64,000 nt of DNA from Williamsia herbipolensis (lineage in GTDB: Bacteria > Actinomycetota > Actinomycetes > Mycobacteriales > Mycobacteriaceae): positions 62,001 through 126,000 of the forward strand of contig NZ_JXYP01000029.1 of the NCBI RefSeq assembly GCF_000964005.1, written 5' to 3'. Made by a program: the position numbers and the translations under genes. This document shows positions 34,347 to 63,095 of this stretch, in pieces. Each line of letters begins with the position of its first letter. Position 1 is the first letter of the stretch. The notes under the pieces were generated by a model. The model worked only from the letters and a program-made list of their open reading frames with translations. It had not been told where the DNA came from and made no database searches.

Positions 34347-34399
34347 TCGATCGGGCAGCTATTCGCATCGATCGGGCACCTGTCGCCGTCGATCGGGCA
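34347..34399. repeat. Three direct repeats TCGATCGGGCA with exact 21-bp period
   Basis: TCGATCGGGCA occurs at 34347-34357, 34368-34378 and 34389-34399. The spacing is exactly 21 bp, two helical turns, and flanking bases agree further (C/A before, C/G after). The unit contains the palindrome TCGA. The array lies in the roughly 330-base gap between the divergent LCP gene and the first 13E12 element. It has the look of a multi-site operator. The rest of the gap, from 34174 to 34507, holds no gene that I can support. Confidence 0.75.
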
Positions 34400-34490
34400 G
34401 GTGTCTGCACAGCATGTGGATGACGCGGCGCTCGCTCCCAATTCGTGTCGGTGCCGTGCGGTAGCGTGATGATCGGGGGCGTCGCCCACG

Positions 34491-34505: not shown

Positions 34506-34544
34506 TGTCAACAGTATTCGTCAAATTCGCCCTTGCGCTCCCGC

Positions 34545-34560
34545 TCGAACGTATGTACGT
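34545..34560 (+). promoter_or_regulatory. LexA-like SOS box upstream of 13E12 gene, copy 1
   Basis: TCGAACGTATGTACGT compared with the actinobacterial SOS box TCGAAC-N4-GTTCGA: the left half is perfect, the right half agrees at four of six positions. It ends 7 bases before the ATG. Known 13E12-family genes in M. tuberculosis have SOS boxes, and the second copy here has one too. Confidence 0.65.
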
Positions 34561-34567
34561 TTGACCC

Positions 34568-35842
34568 ATGACCGGGGGATCATTCATCGAACTCGCCGAC
34601 CTGGTGGTCGACGAGGTCGGTTCACAGGGAACAGTTGTCGCCGATATCGACGCCGAGATCGTCGCCGCCATCCGTGGCGCCGTCGCTCTCCGGGCGGTGG
34701 TCGACGGGGTGTTGGCGCGGTTGACGTCGCAGGCCGAGCGTGTCGGGGTCGCGACACACTGCGGGATGTCGTTGCGAGAACTGTTGGTCGCCAACGGTGT
34801 CGCGCCGGCCGTGGCGTCACGATTGATCCGCCTCGGACGGGCCGCGGAGGTCCTACCTCTGCTCGCTCGCCACTCCCGCGACGGTGACCTGTCGGCCGAA
34901 CACCTCGATGCGGTCGCGCGCGGAATCGAACACGTCGCCCGCCGCACCGGTGAAGCACTCGATTCCGATGTGGTGTCGGGCCTGGAGCAGCGGCTGATCG
35001 GGGCCGCGATCGCCGGCAAGAATCCCGCGGAGATCGTCCACGACGCCCGCGCCGCGGCGATCGCACACTCACCCGTCGAGCCTCCCGAGGTACCGGCCGC
35101 CGAAGACCCGGCCCTCAACGAACTGGGCTGGTCGCAGACCGGCGACGGCCGGCTACGCGGCGAGTTCGACCTCGACGCGGTCACCGGCGAACGACTCATC
35201 ACCGCCCTCGACTCGGCGTCACGCCCCCGCCCCGAACCCGACGGATCACCCGACCCGCGCGCGGCGGGCCGGCGACGTGCCGATGCGTTCGCCCAACTCC
35301 TCGAGGCCGGCACCCGCGGACTCGCACCCGAGGCCCTGTCAGGTCCGGCGTCCACCGAGTTGGTCCTCACGATCCCGCTCGAGGGATCGGCCCCCGCGGG
35401 GGCCGCGCGCCTGAACTGGCTCGGACCGGTCTCCGACCTGTCGGCACGACTTCTGGCCTGCGACGCGAAAGTCCTGGGGATCGGGGTCGACCTCAACGGC
35501 GCACCCGTCTCCGTCGCCGCCGAGAAGCGGCTCTTCACCGGCGCGGCACGCACGGTGATCCTCACCAGAGACCAGTGCTGCATCAAGTGCGGAGCGCCGA
35601 CGTCGTGGACCGACGTCCACCACATCACCCACTACGCCGACGGCGGCAAGACCGTCGTCGACAACGGATGCCTCCTGTGCCGCCGCTGCCACGTCGCCGT
35701 CCACACCGCCGGATGGGACATCGTCATGGGTTACGACCGACACCCATGGCTCATCCCACCGCCGGCCATCGACCCGAAGCGAACCCCGTTACCCGCTTAC
35801 AACAGAAGAACGTTGACAGCGATGGAACCGGCCGCGGCGTAG
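34568..35842 (+). CDS. DUF222-HNH endonuclease-like protein (13E12 family), copy 1
   Basis: A 424-residue protein. The N-terminal two thirds is the helical DUF222 region (for example VNGVAPAVASRLIRLGRAAE-like and LSAEHLDAVARGIEHVARRT). The C-terminus is an HNH nuclease domain: CCIKCGAP, DVHHITHYADGGKTVVDNG, CLLCRRCHVAVH, with the zinc-binding CxxC pairs and the His-His of the active site intact. Members are assumed to be DNA endonucleases, but their role is unknown. It is preceded by an SOS box and ends a repeat shared with 61589-62893. The HNH core differs from copy 2 at several positions, so the copies are not recent duplicates. Confidence 0.88.
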   Translation: MTGGSFIELADLVVDEVGSQGTVVADIDAEIVAAIRGAVALRAVVDGVLARLTSQAERVGVATHCGMSLRELLVANGVAPAVASRLIRLGRAAEVLPLLARHSRDGDLSAEHLDAVARGIEHVARRTGEALDSDVVSGLEQRLIGAAIAGKNPAEIVHDARAAAIAHSPVEPPEVPAAEDPALNELGWSQTGDGRLRGEFDLDAVTGERLITALDSASRPRPEPDGSPDPRAAGRRRADAFAQLLEAGTRGLAPEALSGPASTELVLTIPLEGSAPAGAARLNWLGPVSDLSARLLACDAKVLGIGVDLNGAPVSVAAEKRLFTGAARTVILTRDQCCIKCGAPTSWTDVHHITHYADGGKTVVDNGCLLCRRCHVAVHTAGWDIVMGYDRHPWLIPPPAIDPKRTPLPAYNRRTLTAMEPAAA

Positions 35843-35930
35843 CGCCGTCCTAGAACCAACGCCCCGCTCACCCGCGGGAGCGGTACGAACATTGACAACT
35901 CCACAGTGTGAAACGGGGCCGGGCGACAGG

Positions 35931-61514: not shown

Positions 61515-61588
61515 GGGTCTCACACTATGGAGTTGTCAATGTTCGTGCCGCTCCCGTGGGTGGGCGGGGCGTTGGTTCAATGACGGCG

Positions 61589-62893
61589 CTATGCCGCGGT
61601 CGGTTCCATCACGGTCAATGTTCTTCTGTTGTAGGCGGGTAGCGGCTTCCGGTGTGGGTCGACGCCGGCGGGTGGGATCAACCAGGGGTGGCGGTCGGTG
61701 CCCATGACGATGTCCCAGCCGTCGTGGTGGACCGCGGTGTGACAGGAGCGGCACAGGAGACATCCGTTGTCGACGGCGGTCGGTCCACCATCGGCAAACT
61801 GAATGATGTGGTGGACGTCGCACCACGAGGCGGGTGCCCCGCATTTGATGCAGCAGCGGTCGCGCAGGAGCACGACCCTGCGGGCAGCTCCGGTGAACAG
61901 CCGCGGCTCGGGTGCCGTCACCGACACTGGCGCGCCGTTGAGGTCAACTCCGACGCCGGTCACCCGAGCGTCGCAGGACAGCAGTTTCGCGGACAGTTCG
62001 GTGATCGGCCCCATCCACATCAACGAAGCGGTACCTGCGGTCACGGTCGCAGCGTCGACGTCGGCGTGGACGGGGATGGTCACGAGGATTTCGGTGCGTG
62101 GCGCCCCGGACAGGGCGTCGGGACCGAGTCCGCGGGTCCCGACCTCCAGTAGCTGTGCGAACGCGTCGGCGCGGCGGCGTGCGGCCGGTCGTGGATCGTC
62201 GGAGCCGTCGGGCTCGGGGCGGGGGCGTGATGCGGTGTCGAGGGCGGTGATCAACCGTTCGGCGGTCAGCGTATCGAGGTCGAATTCGCCGCGCAGGCGC
62301 CCGTCGCCACCGGTGTTCCAGCCGAGCTCGTTGAGGGTGGTGTCCTCAGCGGCCGGTATCCGATCCGGGTCGTCGTCGGGATTCTCGGCACGCATCTCGA
62401 TTGCCGCTGCCCGGGCCCGATCGTTGATCTCGACTGGCGTATTGCCGGCGACTGCGTATCCGATCAGACTGCGTTCCACCTCGCCGATGGCCTCGGAGTC
62501 GATCGTCTCACCGGTCCGCCCGACGACATGTGAAACCCCGCGGGCGACAGCATTGAGGTGTTCAGCTGACAGGGTGGCATCGCGACTGTGCCGAGCGAGG
62601 CCCGGCAGCACAGCGATGGCACGCCCGAGACGGATCACCCTCGCCGCAACAGCGGGCGCGACACCATTGGCGCACAACAGCTCCCGCAACCTCATGCCGG
62701 CGCGTCTGGCAGTACCGACACGTTCGGCCTGATCACTCAGACGTGCGAGCAGGTCGTCGGCGACCGCTCGCAGCGCGACAGCACCCCGGATGCCATCGAC
62801 GATCAGTTCGTCGACGTCGTCGACAATTGTTTCCCTGCAGCCGAACTGATCGACCAATTCGTTGGCGATCTCGGTCAGTGTCCCCCGACTCAT
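61589..62893 (-). CDS. DUF222-HNH endonuclease-like protein (13E12 family), copy 2
   Basis: A 434-residue paralogue of the protein at 34568. The ATG at 62893 is used because a start at 62908 would fall within the SOS box. DUF222 helices fill the first 300 residues (VNGVAPAVAARVIRLGRAIA-like, LSAEHLNAVARGVSHVVGRT), then an HNH domain: CCIKCGAP, CDVHHIIQFADGGPTAVDNG, CLLCRSCHTAVH. Active-site His and zinc Cys are intact. An insert near residue 175 (RAENPDDDPDRIPAAE) and another in the middle (HADVDAATVTAG) explain the extra length. Function of the family is unknown. Confidence 0.88.
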   Translation of the reverse strand: MSRGTLTEIANELVDQFGCRETIVDDVDELIVDGIRGAVALRAVADDLLARLSDQAERVGTARRAGMRLRELLCANGVAPAVAARVIRLGRAIAVLPGLARHSRDATLSAEHLNAVARGVSHVVGRTGETIDSEAIGEVERSLIGYAVAGNTPVEINDRARAAAIEMRAENPDDDPDRIPAAEDTTLNELGWNTGGDGRLRGEFDLDTLTAERLITALDTASRPRPEPDGSDDPRPAARRRADAFAQLLEVGTRGLGPDALSGAPRTEILVTIPVHADVDAATVTAGTASLMWMGPITELSAKLLSCDARVTGVGVDLNGAPVSVTAPEPRLFTGAARRVVLLRDRCCIKCGAPASWCDVHHIIQFADGGPTAVDNGCLLCRSCHTAVHHDGWDIVMGTDRHPWLIPPAGVDPHRKPLPAYNRRTLTVMEPTAA

Positions 62894-62900
62894 GCCTCTA

Positions 62901-62916
62901 TCGTACACACGTTCGA
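62901..62916 (-). promoter_or_regulatory. LexA-like SOS box upstream of 13E12 gene, copy 2
   Basis: On the minus strand TCGAACGTGTGTACGA: eleven of the twelve fixed positions of TCGAAC-N4-GTTCGA agree. It lies 7 bases before the ATG at 62893, the same geometry as in copy 1. Strong evidence for DNA-damage control of this family. Confidence 0.75.
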
Positions 62917-63095
62917 ACAGTGTGCAACCATTAATTTTGATGAATGTTGTTGAGCATGAGTGTATTTCGATTCTTCAGCCCACAGGGCGAGACACGCTAC
63001 ATCCCTCCTCTGACAATACTGGCTACGCAGCAGGAGTTGTCCACAGCCGAGAACCGGCGACCGGACAGCTCGGCCTCGACGGGGACCGCCGAGGA

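What the first reader, a model, noticed from the sequence alone, without database searches (positions are those of the whole stretch)
34508..35914. Two 13E12 elements with sharp shared ends and SOS control
Copies at 34508-35914 (plus) and 61517-62953 (minus) share not only a DUF222-HNH gene but also both non-coding ends. TCAACA lies exactly 37 bases before the SOS box in each, and the 72 bases after each stop match at 65 positions, then similarity stops. The proteins differ clearly (424 and 434 residues with indels), so the ends are better conserved than parts of the gene. This suggests a mobile or homing unit, or a DNA site under selection, induced by DNA damage. Known: the mycobacterial 13E12 family has SOS boxes and REP13E12 repeats are phage integration targets. 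Unknown: what the nuclease does.
Basis: partly seen in the sequence, partly recalled or inferred. Interest (0 to 1): 0.8.

Follow-up and report, generated by a model that had tools for sequence, protein, structure and literature searches.

The report
Damage-controlled nuclease repeat with sharp tail
Two copies of a DNA-cutting-enzyme gene, carried in Williamsia as a dispersed repeat whose one sharp end is a nearly unvarying 19-base tail, appear to insert in new places and to overwrite one another, under promoters that look switched on by DNA damage; the gene family is known, but this behaviour of its ends is not described in what I could search.

Summary
The proposed left end is wrong: the closest paralogues stay similar up to 223 bp upstream. 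That region looks like a double DNA-damage promoter (a PafBC/RecA-NDp-like site plus a LexA box inside a leaderless promoter). The right end is real and sharp. TTGACAACTNCACAG follows DUF222-HNH genes or remnants at 37 of 39 sites in 121 genomes of the family; one more lies at a contig edge, one is unrelated. Similarity between same-genome copies at different sites stops 0-15 bp after this tail in 44 of 44 pairs, while left ends scatter from -8 to -256. Empty sites in congeners show insertion. Gene bodies are homogenised within genomes: 18 of 24 testable copies are closer to a same-genome paralogue than to the same-site orthologue. Window copy 2 is itself a mosaic: an old site with the tail of copy 1's lineage. 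Best reading: a damage-inducible nuclease repeat, anchored at its 3' tail, that spreads rarely and converts its siblings often. That the nuclease drives this is inferred. Family known; tail, one-sided ends and promoter pair look new.

The parts
34446..34467 (+). copy 1 distal promoter, RecA-NDp (PafBC)-like TGTCGGTG-N8-TAGCGT
   Evidence: same motif once upstream of own recA; 19 of 29 subfamily copies against 0.07 expected from shuffles; 3 strict hits in the 64 kb window, two of them at copies 1 and 2. Motif definition recalled.
34508..34529 (+). copy 1 upstream stretch (TCAACAGTATTCGTCAAATTCG) in the place of the 5' block of other copies; does not match the full pattern
34533..34561 (+). copy 1 proximal promoter: TTGCGC, LexA-like box TCGAACGTATGTACG (34545-34559) in the spacer, TACGTT; ATG after 6 nt (leaderless, inferred)
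   Evidence: sequence
34568..35842 (+). copy 1 gene, DUF222-HNH, 424 aa
35843..35910 (+). copy 1 3' tail: hairpin CCCGC(35863-35867)/GCGGG(35874-35878) and terminal TTGACAACTCCACAGTGTG (35892-35910), the sharp right end
62994..63015 (-). copy 2 distal promoter, RecA-NDp-like TGTCAGAG-N8-TAGCGT
63036..63045 (-). TGTGGACAAC box upstream of copy 2 promoter (DnaA-box-like, recalled); similar TGTGGATGAC at copy 1 34415-34424
   Evidence: role unknown
62930..62953 (-). copy 2 5' block TCAACAACATTCATCAAAATTAAT shared with a second DUF222 family
62900..62927 (-). copy 2 proximal promoter: TTGCAC, LexA-like box TCGAACGTGTGTACG (62902-62916), TACGAT; ATG after 6 nt
   Evidence: sequence
61589..62893 (-). 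copy 2 gene, DUF222-HNH, 434 aa; last ~33 nt are of copy 1 type
61521..61588 (-). copy 2 3' tail of copy 1 type, terminal TTGACAACTCCATAGTGTG (61521-61539)

Best explanation
Each window copy is one member of a dispersed, selfish DUF222-HNH repeat of about 1.5 kb: a double DNA-damage promoter, one leaderless gene for an HNH nuclease with a helical N-terminal domain that may be a ParB/SopB-type DNA-binding domain, and a 3' tail made of a short hairpin and the nearly invariant TTGACAACTYCACAG[TA]GTG. I propose that DNA damage induces the protein, that its N-terminal domain recognises the tail (in its own and in sibling copies), that the HNH domain nicks or cuts there, and that recombinational repair then copies the unit leftward from the tail. 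Between existing copies this gives gene conversion that is sharp at the tail and fades within about 110 bp upstream of the start codon. Rarely the broken end is repaired at a new intergenic place, giving an insertion with an exact right end, a ragged left end that can drag along neighbouring sequence, and no target duplication. Shown by sequence: insertion polymorphism, sharp right and ragged left ends, near-exclusivity and conservation of the tail, within-genome homogenisation, the mosaic copy 2. Inferred: damage induction, tail recognition, cutting, and that the nuclease drives copying.
For: Tail: 25 hits of TTGACAACTNCACAG in 8 Williamsia genomes, 0 in the reversed control; 24 are at subfamily copies (24 of 29 copies carry it 52-96 nt after the coding match) and 1 is at a contig edge. 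In 121 genomes of the family: 39 hits, control 3; of the 14 hits outside the GTDB genus, 13 follow a DUF222-HNH gene or remnant (outside Williamsia mostly at 29-46% aa identity) and 1 does not. Ends: 44 of 44 same-genome different-site pairs stop 0-15 bp past the tail, left ends -8 to -256. Insertion: copy 1 site lacks the gene in 6 of 6 congeners where flanks were found; site K empty in 4, sites G and H empty in G001, site M with flanks only about 130 and 305 bp apart in G003 and G005 (not read further). Dragged flank: L108 and L119 carry the end of the site-G neighbour gene. Homogenisation: 18 of 24 copies, 13 of 13 in G001/G004/G007; tree by genome; -170..-110 goes the other way (same site 60.8%, same genome 52.4%); right flanks of same-site copies are mostly 79-93% identical (site E 71-73%) where the genes are 74-90%. 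Mosaic copy 2. Hairpin. Promoter motifs. N-domain model pLDDT 93, best PDB matches SopB, ParB, Noc; the HNH part of the full model resembles McrA. Parallel: Pseudonocardia copies share DNA up to ...DP[DE]QxPR, then mostly unrelated C-termini.
Against: No nuclease activity, binding or movement was observed. Structure matches are weak: no PDB match at E 0.001 or below; best 0.033 (McrA) and, for the N-domain, 0.29 (SopB). Most occupied sites are old and shared between species, so movement is rare. Six of 24 testable copies are closer to their same-site orthologue. Ordinary RecA gene conversion among repeats could homogenise copies without the nuclease. Over all 329 different-site pairs, between genomes too, the right end has median 0 but reaches down to -167, because tail types differ between lineages. 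In the hairpin count, the number of pairs with two-sided change (2) is reached by 436 of 500 shuffles, and the stem was drawn from one of the sequences. Left raggedness may partly reflect promoter divergence, and at sites F and H upstream similarity of same-site copies is absent. Ten of 29 copies lack the strict PafBC-like motif and 6 of 29 lack a LexA-like match by a loose pattern without a control; none of the family A regions (L001-L006, L008-L010, L012) has the PafBC-like motif. Absence of copy 2 in G001/G004/G007 rests on the right flank alone. Family A and the Pseudonocardia copies do not have this tail.
Confidence: 0.5

Rival explanations
1. Host-driven gene conversion only: dispersed DUF222-HNH paralogues are homogenised by ordinary RecA recombination because they are similar; the tail is a 3' regulatory element or terminator, and rare new copies arise by illegitimate recombination. 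The nuclease has another job.
For: Gene conversion among REP13E12 loci is among the most frequent in M. tuberculosis and was ascribed to homologous recombination (PMC13061034: passages and Discussion section). The tail hairpin lies where a terminator would be.
Against: A terminator does not explain 15-19 nt of nearly exact sequence, without a T run, kept in copies whose proteins fell to 29-46% identity, nor an exact right boundary shared by copies at different sites.
Confidence: 0.25
2. Repeated independent insertion into the same preferred sites in each species, not old shared insertions followed by conversion; copies then group by genome simply because each genome was colonised separately.
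For: Site H is occupied by a different DUF222 family in G000, G002 and G003 and by the window-type subfamily in G004 and G007, so sites can be re-used. At sites F and H upstream sequences of same-site copies are not alike.
Against: At sites E, G and I the -170..-110 and -300..-170 stretches are alike between species (68-86% and 79-84%; L105 excepted) although the gene bodies are closer within genomes; copy 2 keeps same-site promoter and body but another tail.
Confidence: 0.12
3. A host DNA-repair nuclease family under damage control (mismatch repair has been proposed for 13E12 proteins), multiplied by ordinary duplication.
For: LexA-regulated 13E12 HNH proteins were proposed as parts of a hypothetical mismatch-repair system (PMC4181829 passages); five putative HNH endonucleases are RecA-dependently induced by mitomycin in M. 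tuberculosis (PMC8151990 passage).
Against: PF02720 matches vary from 6 to 28 among 8 Williamsia genomes (lower bounds), several copies are broken (L131, L132), sites are polymorphic, and a private conserved tail is not expected of a repair gene.
Confidence: 0.08
4. A non-autonomous passenger moved by an unrelated transposase that recognises the tail.
For: Sharp right end and conserved terminal sequence.
Against: No second gene lies in the unit; tail-pattern hits without a DUF222 gene or remnant are 1 of 39, plus 1 at a contig edge, so solo ends are rare; no target duplication was seen.
Confidence: 0.05

Closest known systems
REP13E12 / 13E12 repeat family of M. tuberculosis (DUF222-HNH; PF02720+PF01844)
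   Same: DUF222/HNH repeats (PMC10589994 passages name REP13E12/HNH/DUF222 together), dispersed copies, LexA control proposed (PMC4181829 passages), frequent gene conversion between copies (PMC13061034 passages and Discussion).
   Different: The passages seen describe no 3' tail, no one-sided sharp end and no paired PafBC-like/LexA promoter for these units; no M. tuberculosis sequence was fetched here.
Free-standing HNH homing endonucleases of phages (e.g. of T4)
   Same: A nuclease spreading its own gene through repair is the model proposed.
   Different: Here copies sit at many non-allelic chromosomal sites, carry a conserved private tail and appear to convert one another; cutting is unproven (PMC2988022 seen only as a search listing).
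IS91/ISCR-type one-ended transposons (recalled)
   Same: One exact end with a hairpin next to a conserved terminus, one ragged end that can carry neighbouring DNA.
   Different: Pfam finds only DUF222 and HNH in the protein, no HUH domain.
MSMEG_1275 HNH nuclease of M. smegmatis
   Same: Actinobacterial stress-regulated HNH nuclease shown to cut chromosomal DNA (PMC9416677, abstract and passages).
   Different: DUF222 is not mentioned in that paper's main text; an HNN motif and a cell-death role are described.

Membership tests
13E12 / DUF222-HNH proteins | DUF222 (PF02720) followed by HNH (PF01844), both above curated cut-off | tested here: met
   49 and 46.6 bits against 24.4; 37.2 and 34.1 against 21.4
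13E12 / DUF222-HNH proteins | intact HNH metal and catalytic residues | tested here: met
   (31 sequences): C338, C341, H351, H352, N366, C371, H375, H379 invariant; catalysis itself untested
13E12 / DUF222-HNH proteins | SOS box in the promoter | tested here: met
   exact TCGAACRNRYGTWCG in both window copies; the right half differs from the M. tuberculosis consensus TCGAAC-N4-GTTCGA (PMC4181829 passage) at 1-2 bases; LexA binding untested
REP13E12 repeats | phiRv1-type phage attachment site inside the gene (recalled) | not tested
   no phage site was sought
DDE insertion sequence | transposase gene, terminal inverted repeats and target duplication | tested here: not met
   only DUF222 and HNH; no duplication visible, but flanks are 66-84% identical, so a few bp could be missed
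IS91/ISCR | HUH nuclease | tested here: not met
IscB/OMEGA | RuvC-like domain and adjacent guide RNA | tested here: not met
   no RuvC; Rfam at copy 1 only: two sub-threshold miRNA matches; one search lists IscB as a weak match
Homing endonuclease | cuts the allele lacking the element at the insertion site | not testable with these tools
   needs protein and DNA
PafBC regulon | RecA-NDp motif bound by PafBC | tested here: inconclusive
   motif enriched and also present at own recA; definition recalled, binding untested

The most novel reading that the evidence does not exclude
DUF222-HNH units are a separate class of mobile element: a single damage-induced nuclease, possibly with a ParB-like DNA-binding domain, recognises a hairpin plus 19-nt tail at its own 3' end, and copy-out from that one defined end both spreads the unit and forces concerted evolution of all copies in the genome. 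The large 13E12/DUF222 family of Actinobacteria would then be one of the most successful transposase-free mobile elements of bacteria.
Probability: 0.33. Interest if true: 0.87.

Novelty: new variant of a known kind. Interest (0 to 1): 0.64.

Why it matters
DUF222-HNH proteins are among the repeated genes of actinobacteria, including M. tuberculosis, where their repeats are hot spots of gene conversion without a known function. A defined cis end, empty sites and a testable protein-tail pair turn 'function unknown' into direct experiments: does the protein bind and cut its tail, and does damage trigger conversion? If true, a host stress response would be driving a selfish nuclease that rewrites its sibling genes.

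Tried and rejected
Left end at TCAACA: rejected. The TGTGGACAAC / TCCACAG box as a left terminus: it recurs upstream of many copies, but GGTCCACAG also stands upstream of own recA, so a promoter role is as likely; undecided. Phage origin: no relative in viral contigs (34 pattern matches, 0 confirmed). Known RNA in the tail: none above threshold at copy 1 (copy 2 not searched). Universal tail: Pseudonocardia sp. TRM90224 and family A copies do not share it. A base preference just after the tail (mostly a purine) was seen by eye only and is not claimed. Not searched: plasmid, phage and E. coli collections, PADLOC, PHROGs, NCBIfam.

Dropped rows and limits: L139 (one stop) and L160 (frame broken) were left out of alignment A2, and L153-L157, L159 and the lesser loci were not put in. 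One search used 27 of the 29 copies (L129 and L132 lack the tail). One search used 19 of 20 Pseudonocardia copies. One search aligned 14 of the tails. One search covered 8 of the 16 flank pieces prepared, the last cut to 140 nt. The identities use one gapped alignment that includes broken L131 and truncated L132. Site labels were first given by eye and checked: right flanks agree for all same-label pairs except C2/L099 (short contig; left flank agrees) and the two pairs with L110 (L110 and L122 agree on the left flank only; L105 and L122 on the right only). PF02720 counts are lower bounds: L099 and L130, found by DNA, are missing from the list.

Full report
What is there. Copy 1 (34568-35842, +) and copy 2 (61589-62893, -) encode DUF222 plus HNH. 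The genome shows 28 DUF222 matches and congeners 6 to 19; these are lower bounds, since L099 and L130, found by DNA, are missing from that list. The window copies belong to a subfamily with two further copies in the same genome, L131 (broken) and L132 (3' truncated).

The 5' side is mostly promoter. Both copies have a -35-like TTGC[GA]C and a -10-like TACG[TA]T, 16-17 nt apart, with a LexA-like box in between and the ATG 6 nt after the -10, so the mRNA would be leaderless (inference). About 100 bp upstream of the ATG sits a motif that fits the RecA-NDp promoter used by PafBC (definition recalled; the passages of PMC6789036 and PMC8223512 seen state that the motif exists and that some genes carry both controls, but do not print it). 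It is found in 19 of 29 subfamily upstream regions against 0.07 expected from shuffles, and in 26 of all 53 regions tested against 0.2; none of the family A regions (L001-L006, L008-L010, L012) has it. The genome's own recA has one such motif and a LexA box. In the 64 kb window the strict motif occurs three times, two of them at copies 1 and 2. A further 5' block, CAACANNATTCANNNAAATYAA, has 8 hits in 8 genomes, 0 in the control, all upstream of DUF222 genes of two families whose proteins are only 24% identical; it matches copy 2 but not copy 1.

The 3' side is the striking part. After the stop codon comes a short hairpin whose six-pair stem forms in 85.7% of cells on 14 tails; no shuffle of 500 reaches that percentage or the covariation score, but the count of two pairs with two-sided change is reached by 436 of 500, and the stem was drawn from one of the sequences. 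Then comes TTGACAACTYCACAG[TA]GTG. The 15-base pattern TTGACAACTNCACAG has 25 hits in eight Williamsia genomes and none in the control. 24 of the 29 subfamily copies carry it 52-96 nt after the coding match, and the 25th hit is at a contig edge. Across 121 genomes of the family, drawn from a larger group, there are 39 hits (control 3). The 14 outside the GTDB genus were all fetched: 13 follow a DUF222-HNH gene or remnant, and one (L209) does not. In other genera the proteins are mostly 29-46% identical to the window copies, so the tail outlives the protein. Of the 29 Williamsia copies, C2, L115 and L119 have variants of the pattern, L129 is diverged and L132 is truncated.

One sharp end, one ragged end. 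In 44 of 44 same-genome pairs at different sites, similarity ends 0-15 bp (median 1) past the tail; left ends range from -8 to -256 from the ATG. Over all 329 different-site pairs, between genomes too, the right end has median 0, quartiles 0 and 4, but reaches -167, since tail types differ between lineages. Two G004 copies, L108 and L119, carry upstream a piece of the gene that neighbours another site (site G), and L119 also a DUF222 5' fragment. In Pseudonocardia sp. TRM90224, 20 copies of a distant DUF222-HNH family share sequence to ...DP[DE]QxPR and then mostly have unrelated C-termini, though a few pairs (L169/L170, L167/L182) stay alike for some residues more: median identity 84% before that end, 30% in the next 50 nt for 19 copies. 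This is a second case of a sharp right end, without this tail.

Insertion. The copy 1 locus is present without a matching gene in G001, G002, G003, G004, G005 and G007: blastn with copy 1 finds only the flanks, and no PF02720 match is listed there. The gap is about 460-625 bp in G001, G004 and G007, too short for the unit, and 1.7-2.0 kb of other sequence in G002, G003 and G005; in G002 the left flank is only partly held at a contig end, and no syntenic match was listed for G006. Site K (L131) is empty in G002, G003, G005 and G006, where the flank matches are 5-43 bp apart. Sites G and H, occupied in G004 and G007, are empty in G001, with flanks about 24-64 bp apart. Site M has flanking pieces about 130 and 305 bp apart in G003 and G005, and 904 bp in G002 (not read further). 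The copy 2 locus is occupied in G002, G003 and G005; in G001, G004 and G007 only the right flank was found, with no matching gene in the 5.1-5.3 kb fetched.

Homogenisation. For 24 copies with both a same-site orthologue and a same-genome paralogue, 18 are closer to the paralogue, including 13 of 13 in G001/G004/G007; six go the other way (C2, L099, L111, L112, L113, L118). The tree groups the copies of G001, of G004 and of G007 by genome; some inner nodes are weak, and the place of C2 is not resolved. The right flanks of same-site copies are mostly 79-93% identical (site E 71-73%). Upstream at -170..-110 same-site pairs are more alike (60.8% against 52.4% mean), driven by sites E, G and I; sites F and H and the pairs of L105 are not alike. 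Copy 2 is a mosaic: -75..0 is 84-85% identical to same-site orthologues and 55% to copy 1, but the last 33 coding nt and the 72-nt tail are 85-90% identical to copy 1 and 42-61% to the orthologues. Gene conversion of REP13E12 loci in M. tuberculosis (87 events, passages of PMC13061034) is the closest published behaviour.

Protein. The full model is middling (mean pLDDT 69.3); its best PDB matches include McrA-type HNH (E 0.033) and SopB (E 0.40). The N-terminal 178 residues model well (pLDDT 93.0), and the best matches are SopB-DNA complexes, ParB and Noc, with E 0.29-1.2. None of the matches reaches 0.001: a lead, not a proof, for a ParB-like DNA-binding domain.

Mechanism and limits. The pattern asks for something that defines the 3' end exactly and the 5' end not at all, and that makes copies rewrite each other. 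A nuclease that acts at its own tail, followed by recombinational copying, explains this most simply; host gene conversion plus a conserved 3' regulatory element is the main rival. No binding, cutting, induction or movement has been shown here. Literature: ten searches, seen as listings and passages, gave no account of the tail or of one-sided ends. PMC10589994 (passages) lists REP13E12/HNH/DUF222 among repeats picked up by a search for transposon ends. The 1999 description of REP13E12 and the 2002 SOS-box paper are not held and were not read, so they could describe ends.

Noticed in passing
L001, L003, L004 (G000:C47, C23, C49): Family A DUF222 genes in the same genome are flanked by imperfect inverted repeats of roughly 55 nt (upstream ACAACGCACACTCGGCGTCCGGCTTCCGCACCGTCAGCGG..., inverted downstream), seen by eye; several other family A copies keep only the upstream one.
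   Followed up: partly
site H: L106 (G007), L108 (G004), L203 (G000), L204 (G003), L205 (G002), L199 (G001): One intergenic site holds different DUF222 families in different species and is empty in one, suggesting a re-used insertion hot spot.
   Followed up: partly
L119 (G004:C6:342000-347000): A DUF222 5' fragment, a piece of another site's neighbour gene and a complete copy are fused, as if two copying events were layered.
   Followed up: partly
L161-L182 (Pseudonocardia sp. TRM90224): About 20 DUF222-HNH copies, many at contig ends, most taking their C-terminus from flanking DNA after a shared DP[DE]QxPR end.
   Followed up: partly
window 34348-34399: Three spaced repeats of CGATCGGGCA upstream of copy 1; similar units stand upstream of L131.
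   Followed up: no
L207 (own recA), L020, L021, L102-L127: TCCACAG / TTGTCCACAG boxes stand upstream of many damage-type promoters, including that of recA; role unknown.
   Followed up: no
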